Shown here: positions 52,831 to 64,000 of the stretch, in pieces
Position numbering within the stretch: the stretch's first letter is position 1
Layout: each line of letters opens with the position of its first letter
NCBI GenBank assembly: GCA_018241405.1
Contig: JAFEDY010000009.1
Location: forward strand, 1 to 64,000
Source: Pseudomonadota bacterium
GTDB taxonomy: Bacteria > Pseudomonadota > Gammaproteobacteria > Burkholderiales > Burkholderiaceae_C
Direction: 5' to 3'
DNA: 64,000 nucleotides
Program-made: the position numbers and the translations under genes
Notes under the pieces: model-generated
What the model was told of the DNA's origin: nothing
Databases searched by the model: none
The model's input: the letters and a program-made list of their open reading frames with translations, nothing else

Positions 52831-55446
52831 TCAGGGCGGGGCCAGCCGCTTGAGCTGGTAGAGCGCATCCAGCGCCTCGCGCGGGCTCAAGGCGTCGGGG
52901 TTGATCTGTGCCAGGGCCGATTCCACGGGGCTCGCTGCCTGGATCTCGGGCGCGGGCGGCGGGGCGAACAGGTCTACCTGCAGATCGTCCGCGCCGGCAC
53001 GCTCCTCCAGCGCCGCCAGCGTGTGGCGCGCGTGGTTCAGCACGGCGGCGGGCACGCCCGCCAGTTTTGCGACCTGGATGCCGTAGCTGCGGCTGGCCGG
53101 GCCGGGCTGTATCTCGTGCAGGAAGACGATGTCGTGGCCCGACTCGGTGGCGCCCACATGCACGTTCACGGCATGCGGGTGGCGCGCGGCCAGCTCGGTG
53201 AGCTCGAAGTAATGCGTGGCGAACAGCGTGAAGGCGCGGGTTTTGTCGTGCAGGTGCGTGGCGATGCCGCTGGCTAGCGCCAGGCCGTCGAAGGTGCTGG
53301 TGCCGCGGCCGATCTCGTCCATCAGCACCAGGCTGTGCGGCGTGGCGCCGTGCAGGATCTGCGCGGCCTCGGTCATCTCCAGCATGAAGGTGGACTGGGC
53401 GTTGGCCAGGTCGTCGGCCGCGCCTATGCGCGTGTGGATGGCGTCGATGGGGCCCAGGCGGCAGGCGGCGGCCGGCACATGGCTGCCCATGCTGGCGAGC
53501 AAAACGATCAAGGCCACCTGGCGCATATAGGTCGATTTACCGCCCATGTTGGGGCCGGTGATGATCTGCAGGCGCGTGTTGGCATTCAGGCGCGTGTGGT
53601 TGGGGATGAAGGCGCCGCTCGACGTCTCGGCCAACCGGTTCTCCACCACCGGGTGGCGGCCGGCCTCTATGTCTATGCAGGGTTGATCGACGAACTGGGG
53701 CGCGCACCAGTCGAGCGTGAGCGATCTTTCGGCCAGGCAACAGAGTACGTCCAGCTGGGCCAGCGCCTGCGCCAGCCTTGTGAGCTGCGGCACATGGGGC
53801 TGCAGCCGGTCGAGCACCTGTTCGTACAGCCATTTCTCGCGTGAGAGGCCCCGCTCCTGGGCCGACAGGGCCTTGTCCTCGAAGCTTTTCAGCTCGGGCG
53901 TGATGAAGCGCTCGGCGTTCTTCAGCGTCTGGCGCCGGCGGTAGTCATCGGGCACCTTGTCTACATGGCTGGCGGTGACCTCGATGTAGAAGCCGTGCAC
54001 CTTGTTGAACTGCACGCGCAGGTTGGGGATGGCGGTGCGCGCCTTCTCGCGGCCTTCGAGCTCCAGCAGGAAGTCGTCGCAGTTGTTCTGTATGGCGCGC
54101 AGCTCGTCGAGCTCGGCGTCGAAGCCCGGGGCGATCACGCCGCCGTCGCGCACCAGGGCGGCGGGCTCCTCCAGGATGGCGGCGCGCAGCAGCTCGGTGG
54201 CTGCCTGGGGCGGCTGCAGCTGGCCGAAGATTTGCGCCAAAAACGGCTCTGGCGCTTGACTGTTAAGCGCTAGCAGCTCTGCCTTTTGTAGCGTCTTGCA
54301 CAGCGCCACCAGCTCGCGCGGGCGCACCTGACGCAGCGCGATGCGCGCCGTGATGCGCTCCACGTCGCTCACGCCCTTGAGCTCGCCGCGCAGCAGCTGC
54401 CACGGGCCCTGGCCACTGCCCGCGCCGCGCAGCGCCTGCGTGGCGCCCAGGCGCTGGCGCGCGGCGCTGCGATCGCGTGCGGGCTCCAGCAGCCAGGTCT
54501 TGAGCAGGCGGCTGCCCATGCCGGTCATGCAGGTGTCGAGCAGCGAGAACAGCGTGGGCCCATCCTCGCCGCGCAGGGTCTTGACCAGTTCCAGGTTGCG
54601 CCGCGTGGCCAGCGGCAGGTGGATCAGCGCGTCGCTCTGCTGCACGCGCACGCCGTGCACATGGGTCAGGGCCCGGCCCTGCGTGTGCTCGGCGTATTGC
54701 AGCAGGGCGGCGGCGGCAGCGTGGGCGTCGTGCAGGCCCTCGGCATTCCAGGCCTGCAGGCCGGCCGCGCCCAGGTGTTCCAGCAGCTTGCGCTCGCCCA
54801 GGGCGCCGTCGAACTGCCAGTCGGGCCGCAGGCTCATGGGGCAGGTGAAGGCGCCGCCCTGGCGCAGCTGGTTCAGCTGCTCCTCAAAGCGCTGCGTGAT
54901 GCCGGCGCTGTAGATCAGCTCGCTGGGCGCGATGCGCGCCAGCCAGGCGCCCAGCTCGGCCTGCTGGCATTCGGCCAGCTGTACCACGCCCTGCGTCACC
55001 GACAGCCACGCCAGGCCGCAGCGCGCGCGCGCGCCCTGGTGCACGGCCAGCAGCAGCGATTCGCTCTTGTCGGACAGCAGCTCACTGTCCGTGAGCGTGC
55101 CGGGCGTGACCACGCGCACCACCTTGCGCTCGACCGGCCCCTTGGCCGCGCCCACCTCGCCCACCTGCTCGGCAATGGCGACGGATTCGCCCATCTTGAT
55201 CAGGCGGCCCAGGTAGTTCTCCAGTGCATGAAAGGGCACGCCTGCCATGGTCACGGGCTGGCCGGCCGACTGGCCGCGCTGGGTGAGCGTGATGTCCAAC
55301 AGGCGCGCCGCCTTCTCGGCGTCGGCGTAGAACAGCTCGTAGAAGTCGCCCATGCGGTACAGCAGCAGCGTGTCCGGGTGCTGGGCCTTGAGGGCCAGGT
55401 ACTGGGCCATCATGGGGGTGTGCCCGGAGATATCGAATTTGTCCAT
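52831..55446 (-). CDS. mutS: DNA mismatch repair protein MutS
   Basis: Mismatch recognition ATPase of 871 residues. The mismatch-binding N-terminal domain has the Phe-X-Glu motif in [18 protein letters not shown] (DFYELFY). Walker [14 protein letters not shown], Walker [17 protein letters not shown] and the helix-turn-helix [13 protein letters not shown] are all intact. An in-frame copy of the intergenic hairpin repeat encodes about 14 residues, around [11 protein letters not shown], in the core domain. The frame is not broken, so the gene should be functional. Confidence 0.96.
54239..54281 (-). repeat. Hairpin repeat embedded in mutS
   Basis: Read on the minus strand (the mutS sense strand) it is AGAGCTGCTAGCGCTTAACA, then GTCAAGCGCCAGAGCCG and six T. 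All parts of the intergenic family are kept: AGCTGCTAGCGCTT, a short loop, AAGCGC, AGAGCC and the T-run. It is in frame within mutS. Confidence 0.75.
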
Positions 55447-55819
55447 GAAAATCAGTGGCTTGCGTTTCTTCCCGGATCGCGTAGGGACAAATCAGGGCAT
55501 CGTCGATGTATTTTGCCAGTGCTGCCGGGCAGGATCAGGCGCTGCCGAGGTGCAGCAAGTGATGGCGTGTGCGACCGTGCGCTGGCCTGGGTGAGTGCTG
55601 TGTCCTTGCACATGAGCCCGTGCAAAAAAAGGGGGGCGGCTCCTGGAGAACCAAACAGGCCCCTCGCGGACCGCTCGCAATGAGCGCCGCGAAGCGCGCT
55701 TCGCGAATCGACACGGTTCCTGCGTCCAAAACGAAACGCGCTTCGCGCCCCAGCGGCAAATATCGCGCGCCGTGAAGGCGCTGCGATGCTGGCACGGCAA
55801 ATGCAAATAGCGGATCACC
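55447..55819. other. Divergent region mutS / acidic-repeat cassette
   Basis: A 373-bp gap between mutS and the first cassette gene. It contains an 18-bp perfect palindrome at 55688-55705 and a second copy of its right half at 55737-55747. No ORF of a known family is seen. Promoters for both directions must lie here, but I see no convincing -10/-35 pair. Confidence 0.5.
55688..55705. promoter_or_regulatory. 18-bp palindrome upstream of the cassette
   Basis: CGCGAAGCGCGCTTCGCG is a perfect dyad 115 bp upstream of the first gene. Its right part CGCGCTTCGCG occurs again at 55737-55747, exactly 42 bp away, about four helical turns. It could be an operator pair or a stem-loop. Confidence 0.4.
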
Positions 55820-56407
55820 ATGAACCGCTTACTGCTTGGCTACGACCCAGACTTCGATTTGTTCGCTGATGCGCGGCTGCGTGCAGCGACGTCACGCGGG
55901 CGCGAGCCTTTGGCGCTTGCGAACGACCGAACCGAGGCTGCCACCGAGCTGCTTGAAGCAGTCGGGTGCCCGATGCTGCCGACCGCGCTCCGCCGTCTGC
56001 TGCGCAGCGCGGCGCGTGCCGCTGGCGGAAGCATCGACGGCCCGCTCGAAGTCGAACTGATCAGGCTGCTGCAGCACGCCGCGTGCATCGCACTGCCGGC
56101 GCCGCGCACGCTCGCGGCACGCAATGTTGCGGCACGCGCGGGGCGCTTCTTCGGCATCGAGCTCGAAGGCCTCAGTCCCGAAGACCAGGAGTTCGAGAGC
56201 GCGCGCCATTTCATTGAGCTCGTGCGTGCCACCGCGGCGCATGCGGTGCACGCGCCCTCCCATGTGCAACCGGCAGCCGCGGCGCGGCTGGCCGCCTCGC
56301 GCGCAGCCAAGCGCTTCGCTCCGGGGTGGTCGGCCGTGCTGTTGCGGCCAATCGTCACCGCCGGGCGTTCACGCCCTCATCTCGTCCAAGGAGCCCACCA
56401 TGCATGA
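55820..56407 (+). CDS. Cassette protein A: paralogue of the glycine-zipper protein, no acidic tract
   Basis: A 195-residue protein I cannot assign to a family. It shares a layout with the next gene product: a helical segment TEAATELLEAVGCPMLPTALRRLLRSAARA (EAATELLEAV and LRSAARAAGG) against EAELAAELLEV and LLSRAARAVGK there, and PEDQEFESARHFIELVR against QEDREFEGAKQFVRLG. The Gly-rich middle and the N-terminal acidic tract of its neighbour are missing. No signal peptide. Its stop overlaps the start of gene B by 8 bp, so they are probably translated together. Function unknown. Confidence 0.75.
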   Translation: MNRLLLGYDPDFDLFADARLRAATSRGREPLALANDRTEAATELLEAVGCPMLPTALRRLLRSAARAAGGSIDGPLEVELIRLLQHAACIALPAPRTLAARNVAARAGRFFGIELEGLSPEDQEFESARHFIELVRATAAHAVHAPSHVQPAAAARLAASRAAKRFAPGWSAVLLRPIVTAGRSRPHLVQGAHHA

Positions 56408-57116
56408 CATCGATCGCACCCAGATGGAATACAGCCCCGAAATGTCGGGCTACGAGGCCGAGAACCTCGAATTCAACGAGCAGGAATGGTCGGGCGAGGG
56501 CGAAGGAGAGGGTGAGTACGGAGAGTACGAAGGCGAAAGCTGGGAGACCTACGGCGAGACCGTGCTCGGCGAAGCCGAGGAAGCCGAGCTTGCCGCCGAG
56601 CTGCTTGAAGTCACCAACGAGGCCGAGCTTGACCGCTTCATCGGCAAGCTGCTCAGCCGCGCCGCGCGCGCCGTCGGCAAGGCGGTGCGCTCGCCGCTCG
56701 GCAGGGCCGTGGGCGGCGTGCTCAAGGGCGTGGCCAAGAAGGCGCTGCCGCTGGCCGGCACCGCCCTGGGCGGTGCCATCGGCGGCCCGCTGGGCGCCAA
56801 GATCGGCAGCGGCCTCGCGTCGGCCGCGGGCAGTGCGCTGGGCCTTGAAGGCGAGATGCTGGAACAGGAAGACCGTGAATTCGAAGGGGCCAAGCAGTTT
56901 GTGCGCCTGGGCGCCGACACGGTCAGGCAGGCCGCGGTCGCGCCACCGGCGGCCGACCCGCGCAGCACGGCGCAGAACGCGGCCATCGCCGCCGCCGGCA
57001 GGCACGCGCCGGGGTTGATTGGCGGCGCCGCTGCGGCGCGCCCGGCACCAGGATCGCGCGGGCGCATGGGCCGCTGGGTGCGGCGCGGCAACCGCATCGT
57101 GCTGTACGGCGCGTGA
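56400..57116 (+). CDS. Cassette protein B: acidic tract plus glycine-zipper protein
   Basis: A 238-residue protein. Residues 10-65 are Glu/Gly/Tyr-rich (GEGEGEGEYGEYEGESWETYGE in pieces such as GEGEYGEYEGE). Residues 80-135 are a basic and Gly-rich hydrophobic stretch (SPLGRAVGGVLKGVAKKALPLAG, GTALGGAIGGPLGAKIGSGL) with GxxxG repeats typical of glycine zippers. A conserved-looking QEDREFEGAKQFVRL helix follows, then a basic C-terminus GRMGRWVRRGNRIVLYGA. The zipper could insert in or associate with membranes, as in some bacteriocins and pore formers; this is only a resemblance. No signal peptide. Unrecognised family with many hypothetical relatives, as I recall. Confidence 0.8.
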   Translation: MHDIDRTQMEYSPEMSGYEAENLEFNEQEWSGEGEGEGEYGEYEGESWETYGETVLGEAEEAELAAELLEVTNEAELDRFIGKLLSRAARAVGKAVRSPLGRAVGGVLKGVAKKALPLAGTALGGAIGGPLGAKIGSGLASAAGSALGLEGEMLEQEDREFEGAKQFVRLGADTVRQAAVAPPAADPRSTAQNAAIAAAGRHAPGLIGGAAAARPAPGSRGRMGRWVRRGNRIVLYGA

Positions 57117-57159
57117 CGACCGCGTGCAGCTGACGCCAGCCAACGCAAGAGGCCCCACC

Positions 57160-58458
57160 ATGGTCATCAGCCCGTTTGCCGCATGGATGCTCGCGCAGGA
57201 AGCGCGCGCGCTGCTGACGCGCCTGGCGCACGTCAAGCCGTTCGCGCTGATCGAGCCCATGCTGCCGGCCGCTGCTCTGCAGCCCGACGCGCAGGTGGCG
57301 ACCGAGCGCTACCTGCTGGCTGGCCGGCGCGCGCTGCGTGCGCTGGTGCTCGACTTTCTTGCCTGGCTGCAGGGCGCGCGCGCGGGCCACGCCACGGCCG
57401 CCGAGGCGCAGCGCCGCTTTACCCTGCTGCGCCTCCGCTTCAACGCGGTGTTGACGCAATTCGATCTGTTCAACGACGTGATCTCGCAGCGCAGCGAGCG
57501 CGACATCGGCGTCTGGCTGTGCGGACTCGACGTGGTCGCCGCCGACGCGCTGCGCCTGCCCGGCGTCTATCAGTCGCCGCCGTTGATGTGCTACCTCGAC
57601 CGCGGCATCGGCGCGGCGATCCGCCGTGCCCGCACGCGGCTGCCCGGCGGCGGCGAGAGCCCGGTGGCGATCATCCGTGTGCCGCGCGAGCGCATGGTCG
57701 GCAGCGGCATCGCATCGTCGCTGATCCACGAGGTGGGCCACCAAGCCTCGGCCCTGCTCGACCTGACGACTTCGCTGCGTCCGCTGCTGCAGGGCATGCA
57801 GCGCGGCGGCGGCAACGCCTGGAAACTGTTCGAGCGCTGGATAGGCGAGATTTTGAGCGACTTCTGGTCGTGCGCGCGGCTGGGCATATCGGCCACTCTG
57901 GGACTGATGAGCGTGGTCGGCCTGCCGCGGCCCTTCGTGTTCCGCCTGAGCCTGGACGACCCGCACCCGGTGCCCTGGCTGCGCGTGCGCCTGTCGTGCG
58001 CGATGGGCATGGCGATGTTCCCGCACCCACAGTGGCGGCGCCTTGAGGAGCTGTGGAGCGCGTATTACCCGCTGGACGGACTCGACGCTGCACATCGGCA
58101 GTTGTTTGCCGAGGTGCTGGCAGCGACGCCGGGCTTCGTCGGGCTGCTCGCCAACCACCGCCCGCCGGCGCTGCGCGGCCGCTCGCTGCAGGAAGCGCTG
58201 GGCGTCGCGCAGCGCCAGCCGGCGCGGCTCGATGCACTGTTCGGCCAGTGGCAGCGCGCGCCGTCGGCGATGTACCGCGCAGCGCCGTCACTGGTGTTCG
58301 CGGTGCTGGGACAGGCACGCGCCAACGCACGCCTGACACCCGAAGAAGAGAGCCACTTGTTTGGCCGGCTGCTGACGCATTGGGCGCTGCGCAGTGCGCT
58401 GAACGACACCACCCCTGCTGTGCGCCCACGGCAGGAACCCGGACTCACGGTCCACTAA
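57160..58458 (+). CDS. Cassette protein C: HExxH (gluzincin-like) putative metallopeptidase
   Basis: A 432-residue protein with the zincin motif HEVGH at residues 190-194, preceded by SGIASSLI. A second motif, GEILSDFWS, begins at residue 229. In thermolysin-like gluzincins the third zinc ligand is a Glu in an ExxxD motif, and GEILSD fits that pattern (Glu230, Asp234). I therefore call it a probable metallopeptidase. The rest is helical and matches nothing I know. No signal peptide and no acidic tract. The ATG at 57160 is chosen because the preceding 47 codons of open frame overlap gene B. The substrate may be another cassette product or an envelope target. Confidence 0.72.
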   Translation: MVISPFAAWMLAQEARALLTRLAHVKPFALIEPMLPAAALQPDAQVATERYLLAGRRALRALVLDFLAWLQGARAGHATAAEAQRRFTLLRLRFNAVLTQFDLFNDVISQRSERDIGVWLCGLDVVAADALRLPGVYQSPPLMCYLDRGIGAAIRRARTRLPGGGESPVAIIRVPRERMVGSGIASSLIHEVGHQASALLDLTTSLRPLLQGMQRGGGNAWKLFERWIGEILSDFWSCARLGISATLGLMSVVGLPRPFVFRLSLDDPHPVPWLRVRLSCAMGMAMFPHPQWRRLEELWSAYYPLDGLDAAHRQLFAEVLAATPGFVGLLANHRPPALRGRSLQEALGVAQRQPARLDALFGQWQRAPSAMYRAAPSLVFAVLGQARANARLTPEEESHLFGRLLTHWALRSALNDTTPAVRPRQEPGLTVH

Positions 58459-58468
58459 GGAGAGCGAT

Positions 58469-60592
58469 ATGCCTGCCACTTCCCATCCTTCCGCCGAGGT
58501 TCGCCTGGGTGGTGTGCACTTCAGCGTGCACGACGACGGCCGCCCCGTGGCCGGTGCCACCTGCAGCCTGTACCGAGTGCTCGCCGCGGCGCCGGCAAAG
58601 CATGCCGCTGGGTCAAGCGCTGGCGGCGGTGCCATGCGCTACGAATATGTGGCCAGCGCCACCACCGGCCCGGACGGCCACGGTGAGTTCGCGCCGCAGC
58701 CCGCAGGGCAATACAAGGTGCAATGCCACCACGAGCCGCGGCCGGCAGACCAGGACGTAGAAGTCAAGGCCGGCTGCGCGCACGAGGCCTGCTTCGAACT
58801 CGGCCTGCATGTCAGCGCCAGCTTCGCGCTGCAGCGCGACTGTGCGCCCATCGAATGCGCACAGGCCTGCAGCGGCGACCAGGCCGAGCTGCATGTGGAC
58901 TGGTCCAACAGCGACCAGCTCAAGCTGGTGGTACGCCACCCCGGAAGCGCGCGCGTCGATGCCAACGACCCGCGATCGTCGCGCGTGGTGCTGGCGGCCG
59001 GCAGGCAGCAGTACCGGTTCACCGTGCTGACGCCCTACGTCGCCGGTGCCCCGGGTGCGCCGGCGCAGGCCGCGCCAGCGCATGTTCCCACGGCGCTGTC
59101 GATCGATGTGGGCGAGCGCACGCCGCAGCCGATCTCGGGCAACATAGGCGTGGCGATGTCGCGCACCGCCACCGCGCCTACCGCCGATGTGTCGTTCTGG
59201 CAGGGCATCCTGAACAGCACCGAGCAGATGTCGTTCAACAACTATCTGCGCTTCATGAACCTGCTGTTCTGCGGCGAAAGCGACCTGAGCGATGTGCCCG
59301 GGTTCGAGCGGCAGCGCTTTGAGCAAAAGCGCGCACTGCACGACCGGCTGCGCTCGCGCCGCCTGCTGCCCTTCACCGACTCCGACGCCTATCGCGTGAT
59401 CAAGGCCGCGACCGAGGCCTTCGTGATGGTCAACTGCGGCGTGCTCGCGTCGCCACGGCCGTTCGACGACGTGCGCGACGCCGACTACCTGCGCCGGCGT
59501 GACCTGCCCGTGCCCGCAGGGCGCCTTGAGGACGTGTTCACCGAGGACTACCTGGTGCAGGTGCTGGGCGGTGCGCCGGACGACAAGACCTTGCCCTACC
59601 TGGCGGTGATCCGCGCCAAGCTGCCCGACATCTCGATCAAGTTCAACCCGATCGACGACGTTGACAGCCAGCGCGTCGGCCAGTGCACCGGCATCCTGCA
59701 GGAGAAGCTCACAAACCCCTGCCTGCTGGAGCTGATCTGGTCGTACTGGCACGAGGAAGGAATGCTGGCGCAGACCATGAACGCGATCACGCGCCGGTTC
59801 CAGAACGTGCGCACCAGCGCGCGCGATCCGCTGGCCAACCTGGAGATCGACCCGCTGCGCCCGCTCAACAACGTGCTGTGGGGCTTCGTGCAGGACGAGC
59901 AGCACCGCCTGTCGGTAGTGCGACGCAACTACGAGTACGACCACCACTACGGCCTGCGGCTGGAAGGCCGCGCGGTGCAGAACATGCGGCCGGCCGACAG
60001 CCGCTCGCGCTTCATCGAGGCCTTTCACAACCTGCTGCGGCTGGCCGTTGTGTTCTTCAAGCAGGACGACGACACCACGGTCAAGGCCGATGCCTTCCCG
60101 GTGCTCAACGCGCTCAAGGAGGTGCACCTGATCCTGTCGCAGGGCGCGCACAACCAGTTTGGCGACCTGCCATCGACCGCGCGCATCGAGATGCTGATGG
60201 AGCAGTGGCTGTTGGCGCGCCCCGAGTTCCGCGAGTTCCTGCCCACGCGCATCATGACCGCCTACCCCGAGCCGTGGATGGACCGGGTCGATGCGATGAA
60301 GAAACTGCAGGGCTGGAGCGATGCCAGCGTGCTGCACTTTCGCAACCTGGCGATCTTCGGCGAGCAGGTGCTGCTGTCGATCCGCTGGGGCCATTGGAGC
60401 GACGTGCAAGAGCCGCTGCAGGCCTTCAACTGGCTGCGTTTCTTCCGCCCGCAGATCCAGGGCTATGCGCATGCCTACCGCGCGGTCACTGGCGTGGATC
60501 TGACTGTTGACACCGCCGACAAGCGTGTCGATTCGACCCTGCCATCGGTGCTGCTGCAGCGCCGGCTGGGGCTGCAGCAACGCACGGCATAA
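58469..60592 (+). CDS. Cassette protein D: large protein with Ig-like N-terminus
   Basis: A 707-residue protein of a family I do not recognise by name. Residues 10-100 look like a carboxypeptidase-regulatory/Cna-B-like beta-sandwich (VHFSVHDDGRPVAGATCSLYRV then TTGPDGHGEFAPQPAGQYKVQC, split as GRPVAGATCSLYRV and GHGEFAPQPAGQYKV). The remaining 500 residues are mainly helical, with strongly polar, well-patterned blocks (DPLANLEIDPLRPLNN, VQDEQHRLSVVRRNYEYDHHYG, LILSQGAHNQFGDLPSTARIE). I see no known catalytic motif. RBS AAGGAGA is eight bases upstream. It lies 10 bp after gene C. It may be the scaffold or carrier of the set. Confidence 0.75.
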   Translation: MPATSHPSAEVRLGGVHFSVHDDGRPVAGATCSLYRVLAAAPAKHAAGSSAGGGAMRYEYVASATTGPDGHGEFAPQPAGQYKVQCHHEPRPADQDVEVKAGCAHEACFELGLHVSASFALQRDCAPIECAQACSGDQAELHVDWSNSDQLKLVVRHPGSARVDANDPRSSRVVLAAGRQQYRFTVLTPYVAGAPGAPAQAAPAHVPTALSIDVGERTPQPISGNIGVAMSRTATAPTADVSFWQGILNSTEQMSFNNYLRFMNLLFCGESDLSDVPGFERQRFEQKRALHDRLRSRRLLPFTDSDAYRVIKAATEAFVMVNCGVLASPRPFDDVRDADYLRRRDLPVPAGRLEDVFTEDYLVQVLGGAPDDKTLPYLAVIRAKLPDISIKFNPIDDVDSQRVGQCTGILQEKLTNPCLLELIWSYWHEEGMLAQTMNAITRRFQNVRTSARDPLANLEIDPLRPLNNVLWGFVQDEQHRLSVVRRNYEYDHHYGLRLEGRAVQNMRPADSRSRFIEAFHNLLRLAVVFFKQDDDTTVKADAFPVLNALKEVHLILSQGAHNQFGDLPSTARIEMLMEQWLLARPEFREFLPTRIMTAYPEPWMDRVDAMKKLQGWSDASVLHFRNLAIFGEQVLLSIRWGHWSDVQEPLQAFNWLRFFRPQIQGYAHAYRAVTGVDLTVDTADKRVDSTLPSVLLQRRLGLQQRTA

Positions 60593-60608
60593 ACCACAGG
60601 AGACTGCC

Positions 60609-61430
60609 ATGAGCTTCGAGATCATGTCGTTCGAGACGCCGGCCCAGGCCGGCGAATACGAATACGAGTACGAGTACGAGGACGAATTCGAAGGTGAGTT
60701 TGAAGGCGAGTTCGAAGGTGAGCATGAGGGTCCGAACGAGGCACCCGGGCGCGCGCCGGCGCGACGCTTCGTCAAGGATTTCTCGGGCCCGCCGGCCGAG
60801 TGCGCGGCCGCGCTGCGGCGCGCGCGCAAGACCCGGGCGCAGGCGCTGGCGATCATCGACCTGCAGATTGCCACTGCCATCAAGCTGCTGCGCAAGGCCG
60901 CGGCGGACCTCAAGCGCGGCAGCCGCAGCACGGCCACCAGCGACCTGTTCCTGAAGATCTTCCGTGTGCGGCCGGGCTTCGTGCCGACCTGGCTGAAGAC
61001 CACGGCCAACATCCGCGACCGCGGCGACGTGGTGCGTGTGCGCTGCGAACGTGTGGCCGACCTGCTGGCGTCGGGCCGCATCAAGTTCTTCTGCCGCGTC
61101 ACCGCGGCCAACTGCCCCGACTGCGGCGACGACAACAGCCCCTTCGCCTGCTCCAGTTTCGGCAAGCACCGCGTGATCTGTTTGGGCCAGCCGTTCTGGG
61201 ATGACATGCGCGCCGGCCGCATGACGTCGATGCTGTCGACGCTGATGCACGAGCCGTTCCACATATTTTTCGGCCGCGAGGTGACTGAGCACCGGGCCAA
61301 CGCCGGCAAGTTCGGTGGCATCAACTGCATCGTGCAGTTCGCGTTCGAGGCCAACCGCCGCAGGCCGCCGGCGCGCGTGACGCAGCGCTGCACCGACATG
61401 GCGGTGCGCAAGGAACTCGAGTTCGCATGA
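60609..61430 (+). CDS. Cassette protein E: acidic tract plus HEPFH putative metalloendopeptidase
   Basis: A 273-residue protein. Residues 15-40 are an EYEYEYEDEFEGEFEGEFEG-type tract, followed by a basic linker. The body has HEPFH at residues 214-218 (LMHEPFHIFFGRE) and a C-terminal INCIVQFAFEAN block, reminiscent of the aspzincin M35/peptidyl-Lys endopeptidase layout, although the usual GTxDxxYG motif is not present. Several Cys (CPDCGDDNSPFAC) could form a small metal or disulfide site. A role as a secreted peptidase is inferred. No signal peptide. It follows D by 16 bp. Confidence 0.75.
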   Translation: MSFEIMSFETPAQAGEYEYEYEYEDEFEGEFEGEFEGEHEGPNEAPGRAPARRFVKDFSGPPAECAAALRRARKTRAQALAIIDLQIATAIKLLRKAAADLKRGSRSTATSDLFLKIFRVRPGFVPTWLKTTANIRDRGDVVRVRCERVADLLASGRIKFFCRVTAANCPDCGDDNSPFACSSFGKHRVICLGQPFWDDMRAGRMTSMLSTLMHEPFHIFFGREVTEHRANAGKFGGINCIVQFAFEANRRRPPARVTQRCTDMAVRKELEFA

Positions 61431-61449
61431 GCGCCGCTGGAGCATCGCC

Positions 61450-62517
61450 ATGGCCGACTTCACCGATGCCCGCTACCTCGGGCTGCGCCATGCCAGCCTT
61501 GATCTGCCCGGCTGGCCGCAGCTGACGCTGGGCCGCCCGGCCGTGCTGGCCGAACCGCCCGGCGCGCTGGACGCGGCCGCAGCGCTGGCGTGCCTCTCGG
61601 GCGCTGCGGCAGCCACGCTGCTGCCCTCCACGCTGCACCTTTTTTGGGATCTGCTGCGTCAGCTTGCCAAAAGCGCGCGCTCGGCACTGCTGCTGGATGC
61701 CGGCGCCTACCCCATCCTGCAGTGGGCTGCCGATGGCGCGGTCGCTGCCGGGGCGCGCGTGCAGCGCTTCGCGCACCACGACGCCGCGGCGCTGGCGGAG
61801 CGTGCCCGCCAGGCCGTGCGCTCCGGGCTGCGGCCGGTGATCGTCTGCGACGGCTTTTGCACGGGCTGCAACCGCGCCGCGCCGCTGGCCGACTATGCGC
61901 GCATCGCGTCGGCCAGCGGCGGCCTGCTGGTGTTCGACGACACGCAGGCGCTCGGCGTGCTCGGCCGCGCGCCAGACTCATCCTGTCCCTACGGCCACGG
62001 CGGCGGCGGCTCGCTGCGCTGGCACGGCCTGGGCGGCGATCACATCGCCATGGGCGCGTCGCTGGCCAAGGCTTTCGGTGCGCCGCTGGCGGTGCTGGCC
62101 GGCGGCTGCGAGCTGGTCGGGCGCTTCGTGCAGGACAGCGGCACGCGCATGCATTGCAGTCCGCCGCCGGTGGCCGTGGTGCAGGCGGCACGCGCCGCGC
62201 TTGCGCGCAACGCGAGCAAGGGCGAGCTGTGGCGCGTGCGCCTGCTGCGCCTGGTGCAGCGCCTGCGCACGGCACTGGTGCATGCTGGGCTTGATGCGGT
62301 GGGCGCGCTGCCGTTTCCGGCGCAGTCGTTCCTCCCGCGCAGTGCGCCGGCTGCGGCGACGCTGTGGCAGTTGGCGCAGCGCCTGCGTGACGCCGGCGTG
62401 CAGGCGCTGCTGACGCGCGGCTGCCGCGGCCCGGCGCCGCGCCTGAGCTTTCTCGTCACCGCGCGCCACTGCGCGGCCGACATCGATCCCATTGCCGCGC
62501 TGGTGGCGCGTGGCTGA
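61450..62517 (+). CDS. Cassette protein F: 8-amino-7-oxononanoate synthase-like PLP enzyme
   Basis: A 355-residue fold-type I PLP protein related to AONS/KBL. Schiff-base Lys207 in GASLAKAFGAP, and the cofactor-binding Asp region VFDDTQALGVLG at residues 161-172. AONS and KBL usually have a His after the Asp (D-x-x-H or DDSHA), and here it is Gln (DDTQA). This may alter the acyl substrate or chemistry. It is shorter at the N-terminus than typical AONS (about 390). The genes around it are not biotin genes, so the enzyme is probably recruited to make or modify a small molecule or peptide. It follows E by 19 bp. Confidence 0.78.
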   Translation: MADFTDARYLGLRHASLDLPGWPQLTLGRPAVLAEPPGALDAAAALACLSGAAAATLLPSTLHLFWDLLRQLAKSARSALLLDAGAYPILQWAADGAVAAGARVQRFAHHDAAALAERARQAVRSGLRPVIVCDGFCTGCNRAAPLADYARIASASGGLLVFDDTQALGVLGRAPDSSCPYGHGGGGSLRWHGLGGDHIAMGASLAKAFGAPLAVLAGGCELVGRFVQDSGTRMHCSPPPVAVVQAARAALARNASKGELWRVRLLRLVQRLRTALVHAGLDAVGALPFPAQSFLPRSAPAAATLWQLAQRLRDAGVQALLTRGCRGPAPRLSFLVTARHCAADIDPIAALVARG

Positions 62518-62526
62518 GGAACCGCC

Positions 62527-64000
62527 ATGAACGAATTCGAAATCCTTGCGGCGCTGCCCGCGCAGCCGTACGAAGACGAGACCGGCATTGAGCAGGAACG
62601 CGGCCGTACCGGCGGCGCCCGCACACGGGCGCCCGTGCGTCGGGCAGCAGCACCGCGCGCACCTGCGCGCCGTACCCCGCCGCGTGCGCGCCCACCGCTG
62701 CAGCCCAAGCCCCGCGTGCGCCCACGGCTGCGGCCGTTGCCGCTGCCTCCGTCGTGGCCGCCGTACGGCGCCAGCTACGTCTGGCCGGCGGTGATCGAGC
62801 GCAGTGACGGCACGACGCCCGCGCCTCTGGGCGGGACATCGGGCGGCTCGGCCAGCCCGGACGACGAGCGCTGGCGCTGCGTGCAGGCCTGCTTCAACCG
62901 CCAGGCTGGCCTCGCGCCGCAAGGCGCGGCAGCGCCTGATGCGCCGACACCGGAGCCCGATGCTGCAGCGCCCGACGGCGATGCCGCGGCGCAGGCCGCC
63001 GGCGGCGAACCGGGCGAGTTCGAAACCGGGGGGCGCTACGATGATGAATATGAGGACGAGTACGAGTACGAGTCTGGCGTCGCGCCCGACTGCAAGATCA
63101 TCGACCTCACCGCGCAGGCCGAGCGCAGCCATCGCAAGGCCACGCGCGACCCGAAGAGCGTGTACGCATTGGTGCTGCACCAAATGGCGTGCTGCTTTCG
63201 CCGCCGCGACCCGCTGCGCAGCTACCTGGGCATCAAGGCGCACTTCGCCATCTTGCCCGAGGGCCAGATCCTGCAGCTGCATCCGGTGTCGGCGCTGCTA
63301 TGGGCTTCGCACGGCTTCAACAGCAAGAGCGTGGCGGTCGAATTTGCGGGCAATTTTCCCAATGTCAAAGGTGGTTGGTGGAAGGGCGAGACCTACGGTC
63401 GCAACCGGCCGACGGCGGCGCAGCTCGAAGCCGGGCGTTGCCTGATCCGCCATCTGGTGCGCACCATGGGGCTGCGTGTCGTGCTGGCGCACCGACAGTC
63501 GAGCAATATGCGCGAGAACGACCCCGGGCCCGAGGTCTGGTACCACGTCGGCCAGTGGGCGGTGGATACGCTGGGCCTGTCCGACGGTGGCCCGGGCTTC
63601 AAGATCGGCAGCGGCAAGCCCATCCTCGATGCATGGCGTACCTGGGGCCGCGCCGCCAGCAGCCCGGAGCTCGGGGGCGAATACGAGGGTGAATACGAAG
63701 GTGAATTTGAGAGCGAGGGTGAGGGAGAGTTCGAGACTCCCTCGGCCGGCCTGATGACGCTGCCGGCGGCAATCGCTGACCCGCGCGCCGCCTCGCCTGG
63801 GGTCTACACGCTGTTCAAGGACGGGCAGCGCGTCTACGTAGGCCGCGCCACCGAGTTGCGCCAGCGCCTGCAGCAACACCTGCTTTGCCTGACGCACCTG
63901 AAACTGGGAACCGGGCGTTTCCGCGTCAAGCTGACGCCGCTGGCCGGGGCTTCTCCGGTGCACCTGGGTCGCGTCGAGTCGGCCGTTATCGGCCGCTTTG
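62527..64000 (+). CDS. Cassette protein G: N-acetylmuramoyl-L-alanine amidase with GIY-YIG domain, partial
   Basis: The ORF starts at 62527 and stays open to the window edge, so at least 491 residues are visible. After an Arg/Pro-rich region (residues 25-85) comes an acidic tract EYEDEYEYE near residue 175. Residues 190-360 resemble an Amidase_2 zinc amidase: LHQMACCF with His218, FAILPEGQILQLHP, SKSVAVEFAGNFP, and AHRQSSNMRENDPGPEVW with His322. A second tract GEYEGEYEGEFESEGEGEFE (residues 384-403) leads to a GIY-YIG-like domain: GVYTLFKDGQRVYVGRATELRQRL (GVY at 427, YVG at 437) and a Glu at 484 in RVESAVIGRF. No signal peptide. Confidence 0.8.
   Translation, partial: MNEFEILAALPAQPYEDETGIEQERGRTGGARTRAPVRRAAAPRAPARRTPPRARPPLQPKPRVRPRLRPLPLPPSWPPYGASYVWPAVIERSDGTTPAPLGGTSGGSASPDDERWRCVQACFNRQAGLAPQGAAAPDAPTPEPDAAAPDGDAAAQAAGGEPGEFETGGRYDDEYEDEYEYESGVAPDCKIIDLTAQAERSHRKATRDPKSVYALVLHQMACCFRRRDPLRSYLGIKAHFAILPEGQILQLHPVSALLWASHGFNSKSVAVEFAGNFPNVKGGWWKGETYGRNRPTAAQLEAGRCLIRHLVRTMGLRVVLAHRQSSNMRENDPGPEVWYHVGQWAVDTLGLSDGGPGFKIGSGKPILDAWRTWGRAASSPELGGEYEGEYEGEFESEGEGEFETPSAGLMTLPAAIADPRAASPGVYTLFKDGQRVYVGRATELRQRLQQHLLCLTHLKLGTGRFRVKLTPLAGASPVHLGRVESAVIGRF

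What the first reader, a model, noticed from the sequence alone, without database searches (positions are those of the whole stretch)
55820..64000. Seven-gene cassette whose products share E-[YF]-E-G acidic tracts
Seven plus-strand genes lie end to end with gaps of 8 to 44 bp or overlaps. Three products (56400, 60609, 62527) carry tracts of E-Y-E-G or E-F-E-G units, in different positions and joined to unrelated domains: a glycine zipper, an HExxH protein, and an amidase-GIY-YIG chain. A tag that recurs on unrelated catalytic domains suggests a common sorting, metal-binding or assembly signal. The set also has a second HExxH protein, a 707-residue protein and a PLP enzyme. The domains are those expected for breaking down envelopes or DNA, yet no protein has a Sec signal. 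I think it is a delivered-effector or bacteriocin-like system, but no secretion apparatus is visible here. I do not recognise it as a described system.
Basis: partly seen in the sequence, partly recalled or inferred. Interest (0 to 1): 0.85.

Follow-up and report, generated by a model that had tools for sequence, protein, structure and literature searches.

The report
Self-regulated cassette of tagged wall-breaking enzymes
A ten-gene bacterial cassette, whose core genes are found close together in ten phyla, encodes glycine-zipper proteins and proteins with wall-, protein- or DNA-cutting domains, many of which share an acidic, aromatic tag; it is likely switched on by sigma-54 and is predicted to attack the envelopes of other cells, but how its products would leave the cell is unknown.

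Summary
Acidic-aromatic tracts occur in five products; the two-unit repeat occurs nowhere else in the 3.7-Mb genome. A core (glycine-zipper protein, HExxH protein, ~700-aa protein, usually PLP enzyme, amidohydrolase, sigma-54 activator) recurs in ten phyla, mostly in one order, and on megaplasmids. Of 398 genomes sampled in the phylum, the same four (window's own included) carry zipper, HExxH and ~700-aa protein. Between PLP enzyme and amidohydrolase lies a variable slot: peptidoglycan-binding proteins joined to amidase, muramidase, M74, VanY, DUF2272, glucosaminidase, trypsin-like, phospholipase-D or GIY-YIG domains. An N-terminal F-[ED..]-x-x-P-[FL] motif marks 19 of 36 slot proteins, 0 of 425 controls. 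A -24/-12 motif precedes the first gene in 20 of 33 loci (2 of 224 flank controls). In four genomes, two of them actinobacterial, the only sigma-54 found lies in or beside the cassette. I read it as a mobile antagonism module with an unknown exit route; no T6SS sheath gene was found in this genome. Delivery is unproven, no immunity gene is seen, and three core families match no curated model.

The parts
55790..55804 (+). sigma-54-type -24/-12 motif TGGCACGGCAAATGC, 30 bp before the predicted start of g1
   Evidence: score 13.7 of 14.7, one mismatch in the -12 element; 200 mononucleotide shuffles p 0.005; cross-locus control. A start about 12 bp downstream would leave only a few bases before the ATG at 55820, so g1 may start later
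55820..56407 (+). g1, 195 aa, degenerate zipper-family protein
   Evidence: BLASTP to g2 6e-9; zipper profile 2.4e-7
56400..57116 (+). g2, 238 aa, glycine-zipper protein, start MHDIDRTQ, acidic tract, C-terminal GRWVRRGNRIVLYGA
   Evidence: 2.8e-72
56496..56537 (+). acidic EGEGEGEYGEYEGE tract of g2
57160..58458 (+). g3 (HEX), 432 aa, HEVGHQ ... E230-x-x-x-D234, conserved core metalloprotein
58469..60592 (+). g4, 707 aa, N-terminal beta domains, helical C-terminal part, conserved core protein
60609..61430 (+). g5, 273 aa, N-terminal tract then HEPFH domain without Pfam match
60654..60731 (+). E-[YF]-E tract of g5
61450..62517 (+). g6, 355 aa, BioF-like PLP enzyme, invariant lysine K207 in SLAKAFG
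62527..64000 (+). g7, 508 aa (ends at 64053), Arg/Pro-rich linker, Amidase_2, weak GIY-YIG, two tracts
63016..63075 (+). first tract of g7
63679..63735 (+). second tract of g7

Best explanation
This is the left part of a ten-gene cassette whose core recurs in ten phyla and which likely works as a sigma-54-switched antagonism module: glycine-zipper proteins, predicted to act on membranes, and tag-bearing enzymes, predicted to cut peptidoglycan, protein or DNA, would be made together and turned against other cells' envelopes. Shown here: the linked core (zipper, HExxH protein HEX, ~700-aa protein g4, usually PLP enzyme, amidohydrolase and divergent sigma-54 activator), the variable cargo slot, a shared acidic-aromatic mark, a sigma-54-type promoter motif, and carriage on megaplasmids. 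Inferred: the F-E-x-x-P-F motif and the tracts are docking or sorting marks read by the core; HEX matures the zipper proteins usually encoded just before it; the PLP enzyme and amidohydrolase modify a component or make a small molecule; the zipper domain, in places on the same chain as an amidase or a GIY-YIG-like domain, helps cargo cross or open a membrane. The exit route is unknown.
For: Core recurs in 40 loci found with the zipper and on plasmids. In 398 sampled genomes zipper, HEX and g4 occur in the same four, near each other. Slot proteins carry lytic domains: PG_binding_1 in 19 of 34 scanned, with DUF2272, M74, Muramidase, Amidase_2, VanY, Glucosaminidase, Trypsin, PLDc or GIY-YIG. N-terminal motif in 19 of 36 cargo, 0 of 160 core, 0 of 265 flanking proteins. 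Slot differs while core is kept in seven Oxalobacteraceae loci. Zipper plus Amidase_2 on one chain in L017. Sigma-54 motif 20 of 33 against 2 of 224 flanking and 0 of 89 inner genes; RpoN in 33 of 33 cassette genomes. Precedent: a GxxxG segment is needed for Tde1 to enter target cells (PMC10240207, abstract).
Against: No exporter and no immunity gene seen in the cassette. TssC match absent from 16 of 33 cassette genomes, this one included, so no known injector serves all. The PLP enzyme and amidohydrolase have no obvious place in a toxin system. PLP enzyme, amidohydrolase or activator were not found in some loci. The strict N-terminal motif is missing from 17 of 36 cargo, g7 and g9 among them. 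No activity was tested.
Confidence: 0.42

Rival explanations
1. A protein- or peptide-modification system, RiPP-like: zipper proteins (constant start MHDIDRT in many, variable acidic part, constant helical part) are the substrates; HEX is an alpha-ketoglutarate-type HExxH hydroxylase or a protease, and the PLP enzyme and amidohydrolase tailor the product; the lytic proteins are partners or further substrates.
For: HEX is a conserved HExxH protein encoded next to the zipper in most loci; a 27-column stretch around HExxH aligns with nine mod_HExxH sequences (hhalign E 0.0029 but probability only 10.7); HExxH enzymes that hydroxylate RiPP precursors and cleave backbones are known (PMC12636437, passages); two metabolic-type enzymes are in the core.
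Against: NCBIfam TIGR04267 is not matched by any of 33 HEX proteins; no transporter; global profile alignment gives nothing; does not explain lytic cargo.
Confidence: 0.2
2. A programmed self-lysis or release module: zipper proteins open the cell's own membrane, cargo breaks its wall and DNA, and the sigma-54 switch decides when.
For: No Sec signals, no exporter and no immunity genes seen; zipper plus wall hydrolases resembles a holin-endolysin pair (analogy, recalled).
Against: Cargo variety (proteases, phospholipase D, esterase-like parts) and transfer on plasmids fit antagonism better; nothing explains HEX, g4 or the metabolic enzymes.
Confidence: 0.15
3. An intracellular assembly: acidic-aromatic tags gather enzymes onto a zipper scaffold inside the cell, with no delivery.
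For: A short N-terminal mark on diverse enzymes, tracts in zippers and cargo, no exporter seen.
Against: Many cargo proteins have peptidoglycan-binding domains, of little use in the cytosol.
Confidence: 0.1
4. A T6SS effector cluster.
For: Cargo domains are of kinds known among T6SS effectors (recalled); VipB/TssC match in 17 of 33 cassette genomes.
Against: No match in this 99.58% complete genome, nor in the searched Nitrospira, Nitrosomonas, Thiothrix, Nocardiopsis and Chloroflexota cassette genomes, some of them bins.
Confidence: 0.05

Closest known systems
Cdz glycine-zipper bacteriocins of Caulobacter (PMC5380434, abstract)
   Same: Cassette with glycine-zipper proteins; killing is the proposed role
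   [quoted passage not shown] neither was seen here. Cassette here has a metalloprotein, g4, PLP enzyme, amidohydrolase, sigma-54 activator and lytic cargo
Tde1 T6SS DNase effector with N-terminal glycine zipper (PMC10240207, abstract)
   Same: Glycine-zipper segment with a nuclease; here a zipper domain and a GIY-YIG-like domain share a chain in some loci (GIY-YIG there by eye, not by Pfam)
   Different: No T6SS sheath gene in this genome and in 15 other cassette genomes; different zipper family
MIX-type T6SS polymorphic effectors (PMC4549250, search listing only, otherwise recalled)
   Same: A recurring N-terminal mark joined to exchangeable toxic domains
   Different: The mark here is a short F-E-x-x-P-F motif with acidic tracts; cargo sits in a fixed slot of a conserved cassette; no T6SS requirement
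Alpha-ketoglutarate HExxH peptide hydroxylases (IPR026337 / TIGR04267; PMC12636437, passages)
   Same: Helical HExxH protein next to a small conserved protein; similar HExxH-x(4,5)-ALLDL stretch
   Different: No family-model match, different conserved residues after the motif
M48 peptidases (BepA)
   Different: No Pfam or NCBIfam M48 match; that Z may be chance for helical models

Membership tests
T6SS effector cluster | T6SS apparatus in the genome | tested here: not met
   VipB/TssC 0 in the window's genome; 17 of 33 cassette genomes have it
Extracellular contractile injection system cargo | sheath gene near the cargo genes | tested here: not met
   Phage_sheath_1 in 17 of 33 cassette genomes; this genome has one, on contig C18, the cassette is on C71
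Cdz-like bacteriocin | glycine-zipper protein | tested here: met
   conserved glycine-rich segment in 24 aligned proteins
Cdz-like bacteriocin | type I secretion genes and immunity protein in the cluster | tested here: not met
   none recognised among g1-g10 or in the gaps of 9-43 bp; not tested by profiles elsewhere in the genome
Polymorphic toxin system | conserved N-terminal mark with exchangeable catalytic domains | tested here: met
   strict mark in 19 of 36, not in the window's g7
Polymorphic toxin system | immunity gene beside each toxin gene | tested here: not met
   no separate gene fits in the window's gaps; not examined systematically in the other loci
Alpha-KG HExxH peptide hydroxylase (TIGR04267) | match to the family model | tested here: not met
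   0 of 33 HEX proteins at E <= 1
Alpha-KG HExxH peptide hydroxylase (TIGR04267) | profile-profile similarity | tested here: inconclusive
   27 columns, probability 10.7, E 0.0029 in a single comparison with nine sequences
M48 peptidase | HExxH then ExxAD | tested here: met
   invariant in 33 rows; kept in distant relatives L051 and L105
M48 peptidase | match to an M48 family model | tested here: not met
   no Pfam or NCBIfam match for g3; NCBIfam none for the 33 rows
M48 peptidase | shared fold | tested here: inconclusive
Sigma-54-controlled operon | -24/-12 motif and dedicated AAA+ activator | tested here: met
   Sigma54_activat 5.2e-56; transcription itself not tested

The most novel reading that the evidence does not exclude
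A previously undescribed, horizontally moving protein-delivery or assembly machine of bacteria, built on a glycine-zipper protein, an HExxH metalloprotein and g4, that recognises cargo by an N-terminal F-E-x-x-P-F motif and acidic-aromatic tracts, arms itself with exchangeable wall-, membrane-, protein- and DNA-degrading enzymes, and carries its own sigma-54 into phyla that lack one.
Probability: 0.4. Interest if true: 0.93.

Novelty: categorically new. Interest (0 to 1): 0.82.

Why it matters
A multi-gene module kept together across ten phyla, with three core families that no curated library names, its own regulatory circuit and a cargo-marking motif, implies a biological machine that has not been described in the literature I could search. 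If it delivers or assembles enzymes, it adds a secretion or antagonism route whose presence follows neither T6SS nor contractile-sheath genes. The actinobacterial copies bring a sigma-54 factor into a family in which 79 of 80 sampled genomes had none above the curated cut-off, which suggests that the cassette depends on that switch. The motif gives a direct handle: it can be mutated, fused to reporters and used to find more cargo.

Tried and rejected
T6SS and contractile-injection dependence: rejected as a general route. Chance or low-complexity origin of the tracts: rejected for g5 and g7 by shuffles, for the two-unit repeat by the genome search, and across loci by flank controls. Part of the tract DNA is a 12-bp tandem repeat, so its length may change by slippage. 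Phage origin: no HEX match in 50,697 phage records. Defence system: PADLOC gave only weak matches, the GIY-YIG part of g7 to candidate family PDC-S14 (2.3e-5) and g2 to PDC-S29 (0.0073). Folds: for HEX no Foldseek match at E <= 0.001; its first rows are receptors and transporters at rmsd 17 or more, which I treat as noise. For g4 only the N-terminal beta part matches; barely tests residues after 114, so I do not say that the helical part has a new fold. No solved relative by sequence for HEX or g4. Paper searches without a description of the system: all in one open-access library.

Results and weaknesses against the reading. HEX-like proteins exist without the rest: distant partial matches in G099 and G462, shown with short context. 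The order of genes deviates in Nocardiopsis (HEX, sigma-54, zipper, g4) and in the Myxococcota bin L037. L039 shows only the c0 cluster and L046 (Paenibacillus) is a false hit. PLP genes of L013 and L015 were missed by my ORF choice and seen only, so 27 is a lower bound. The HEX tree needs at least three changes of the label Pseudomonadota on well-supported branches, but the tool warns that this is no proof of transfer. The motif was noted by eye and first written as a pattern; its spacing was fixed at two residues and Q was allowed. Of the 19 matches 15 lie at residue 5 to 10; two lie at 19 and 21 of ORFs with an upstream start, one at 27 and one (L021) at 45. Matches from L009/L010, L007 and L008/L012 are not independent. 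The list of 36 cargo was made by hand from domain hits or slot position; L017's cargo was left out because its start is cut off. The cut-off of 13.7 for the promoter score was chosen; other cut-offs are given in the full report. In one search five of the eight 'flank' hits are cassette proteins of the truncated loci L043 and L044 and one is an antisense ORF, so that control errs against me; some 'other c0' proteins are zippers. GIY-YIG in L008-L010, L011, L015, L021 and L024:8872 was read by eye; Pfam supports only L068 above its cut-off, g7 and L024:11206 below it.
Full report
WHAT IS THERE. The window is the first 64 kb of a 94,758-base contig of a 3.72-Mb genome. I read on to the contig end. 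The cassette has ten plus-strand genes. g8 (64082-64849, 255 aa) is a second glycine-zipper protein with a C-terminal EYEGE tract. g9 (64884-65855, 323 aa) has two PG_binding_1 stretches (5.1e-13). g10 (65868-66776, 302 aa) is an Amidohydro_2 protein (2.1e-18). A sigma-54 activator follows on the minus strand (66724-68124; Sigma54_activat 5.2e-56). To the left lies mutS on the minus strand (52831-55446, name recalled); to the right come a PhoD-like phosphatase and genes that I recognise as housekeeping (recalled). g1, g2 and g8 are one family: g1 to g2 6e-9, g2 to g8 9e-20; a profile search of the genome finds these three and no other. The cassette has 69.2% G+C against 66-67% on either side.

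TRACTS. E-[YF]-E units: g7 9, g5 7, g8 3, g2 2, g10 2, g1 1. In 2,000 shuffles each, g5 and g7 were never reached, g8 7 times, g2 17 times. Over the whole genome the two-unit DNA pattern occurs five times, all in the cassette, its reversed control never. Across the related loci, 30-residue windows with at least four acidic-aromatic pairs occur in 37 of 45 zipper proteins, 14 of 38 other cluster-c0 proteins, 1 of 15 other genes inside cassettes, 1 of 30 amidohydrolases (the window's own), 0 of 35 HEX, 0 of 35 g4, 0 of 27 PLP, 0 of 33 activators, 0 of 6 M20 peptidases and 8 of 336 'flank' proteins; five of those eight belong to the cassettes of L043 and L044, which are cut off on one side. In L044, the closest locus, the g7 orthologue keeps its Amidase_2 (4.8e-13) and 6 E-[YF]-E units at the places of the window's two tracts, with other letters.

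A CONSERVED CASSETTE. An alignment of the zipper protein (A1, 24 rows) found 40 loci in named genomes. Clustering their ORFs together with the window locus (41 loci) gave: zipper-containing cluster c0 in 40 loci, g4 family 35, HEX 34, sigma-54 activator 32, amidohydrolase 30, PLP at least 27. The usual order is zipper gene(s), HEX, g4, PLP, variable slot, amidohydrolase, activator on the other strand. Some loci are cut by contig ends. Nocardiopsis and one Myxococcota bin deviate in order. The 33 HEX rows, less the window's own, fall in ten phyla: Pseudomonadota, Nitrospirota, Planctomycetota, Verrucomicrobiota, Acidobacteriota, Chloroflexota, Bacteroidota, Actinomycetota, Myxococcota and Candidatus Schekmaniibacteriota; several are metagenome bins. 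In 398 genomes sampled from the window's phylum, HEX has 5 matches at E <= 1e-10, four strong and one distant partial, g4 4, zipper 4 at E <= 1e-6. The four genomes, one of them the window's own, are the same, and the three genes lie within a few kb on one contig. So the cassette is rare but tightly linked. HEX also occurs on plasmids of Rhizobium (two records), Ensifer and Paraburkholderia (4 of 72,556 records); I opened three: HEX, g4 and activator are in 3 of 3, zippers, PLP and amidohydrolase each in 2 of 3. Protein-database searches gave 1,238 zipper relatives of 7,992 candidates scored and 5,670 HEX relatives of 7,998 scored; both reached the scoring limit, so these are lower bounds.

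THE VARIABLE SLOT. Between PLP enzyme and amidohydrolase lie different proteins in different genomes. Of 34 slot or fusion proteins scanned with Pfam, 19 have PG_binding_1. Further domains: DUF2272 (L007, L069), Peptidase_M74 (L007, L025), Muramidase plus Amidase_2 (L012), VanY (L034), Amidase_2 (g7, L017, L035, L042), trypsin-like (L009, L022), OmpA with a weak M10 match (L023), OmpA with phospholipase D (L041), glucosaminidase (L069), GIY-YIG (L068; below cut-off in g7 and L024). In L017 a zipper domain and Amidase_2 share one chain; in L009, L010, L015 and L021 a zipper domain shares a chain with a part that looks GIY-YIG-like by eye. In seven Oxalobacteraceae loci the core is similar (mean pairwise identity HEX 76%, amidohydrolase 77%, activator 68%, g4 63%, PLP 55% in the five loci where it was called) while the slot differs in number, fusion and content of genes.

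AN N-TERMINAL MARK. Many slot proteins start with F-[EDKRNQ]-x-x-P-[FLY], followed by an acidic stretch and an Arg/Pro/Gly-rich linker: MKQELGFETIPFEI, MNNPFAFEAEPFEV, MKDLFTFEVEPFPI, MNEEFETLPFAA. I first wrote it as a pattern and tested it: 19 of 36 cargo proteins against 0 of 160 core and 0 of 265 flanking proteins; a looser form gave 22 of 36, 5 of 160 and 5 of 265. Six cargo genes first read in frame after (L068, L069; L011, L014, L024:8872, L030) gave 5 matches. The window's own cargo matches only loosely (g7 MNEFEILAALP, g5 MSFEIMSFETP, g10 LEVAPF); by the strict test g7 and g9 fail. Of 25 amidohydrolases whose start was shown (one in part), only the window's has a tract-bearing extension.

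SIGMA-54 CONTROL. A -24/-12 motif (consensus recalled; region 350 bp before to 80 bp after the ORF start) scoring at least 13.7 of 14.7 is found at the first cassette gene in 20 of 33 loci, at 2 of 224 flanking genes and 0 of 89 inner cassette genes; at 13.0 the counts are 23, 3 and 5, at 14.7 they are 9, 0 and 0. Against shuffles of the same stretch, 23 of 34 loci reach p <= 0.05. In the window it is TGGCACGGCAAATGC at 55790. A sigma-54 factor is found in 33 of 33 cassette genomes, and in 4 of 14 control genomes. In two Nocardiopsis genomes, one Chloroflexota bin and Palleronia the single match has the coordinates of a sigma-54 gene in or beside the cassette. Among 80 genomes of the family of Nocardiopsis terrae only that genome has a match above the cut-off; two others have weak matches below it. 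HEX in 80 genomes of the same family: that genome, and one distant relative in a genome without a sigma-54 match.

HOW IT MOST LIKELY WORKS. Shown: linkage, usual order, exchangeable lytic cargo, shared mark, sigma-54-type motif, plasmid carriage. Inferred: on a signal read by the activator the operon is made; the mark gathers cargo with zipper proteins, HEX and g4; zipper segments act on a membrane; cargo reaches peptidoglycan and other targets of neighbouring cells. That a GxxxG segment is needed for a nuclease effector to enter target cells has been reported for Tde1 (PMC10240207, abstract), and zipper proteins kill neighbours in Caulobacter (PMC5380434, abstract). Weak points: no exporter, no immunity gene, no place yet for the PLP enzyme and amidohydrolase. 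That is why I give 0.42 and keep modification, self-lysis and internal assembly as rivals.

WHAT IT IS NOT. It does not need a T6SS: no TssC match here or in 15 other of 33 cassette genomes. Sheath genes are missing from 16 of 33. HEX is in none of 50,697 phage records. Only weak scores against defence families. No description of it in the papers listed. I call it categorically new because the core trio, the mark and the circuit match no named system here; the payload enzymes are of known kinds.

Noticed in passing
L031:8402-9715 and L042:8447-9769: A sigma-54 (RpoN) factor in two Nocardiopsis genomes, within the cassette; the rest of the family sampled has none above the cut-off (1 of 80).
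   Followed up: partly
L007, L008, L012, L045 (cluster c16): An M20-like metallopeptidase gene (family named by eye) is inserted between cargo and amidohydrolase in Nitrospira, gammaproteobacterial and acidobacterial cassettes.
   Followed up: no
L051:233-2244: A divergent HEX protein (HEVAH ... ESYADF) follows a 218-aa very acidic protein; perhaps a second system built on the HEX family.
   Followed up: no
L105:18-1130: Another divergent HEX relative in an actinobacterial genome that has no sigma-54 match.
   Followed up: no
L069:13411-16215: A 934-aa Rhizobium plasmid protein joins the F-x-x-x-P-F mark, PG_binding_1, DUF2272, an unassigned middle part and Glucosaminidase.
   Followed up: partly
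G246:C1:977226-978491 (L050): The HEX match of this relative is reported with one TGA inside: decayed copy, frameshift or artefact. Not mended.
   Followed up: no
window 64082-64849 on the contig (g8) and A1 rows: The slot-side zipper proteins begin with a Cys-rich motif MHxxxCxCxxC, possibly a metal site or lipid/thiol attachment point; the HEX-side zippers begin MHDIDRT instead.
   Followed up: no
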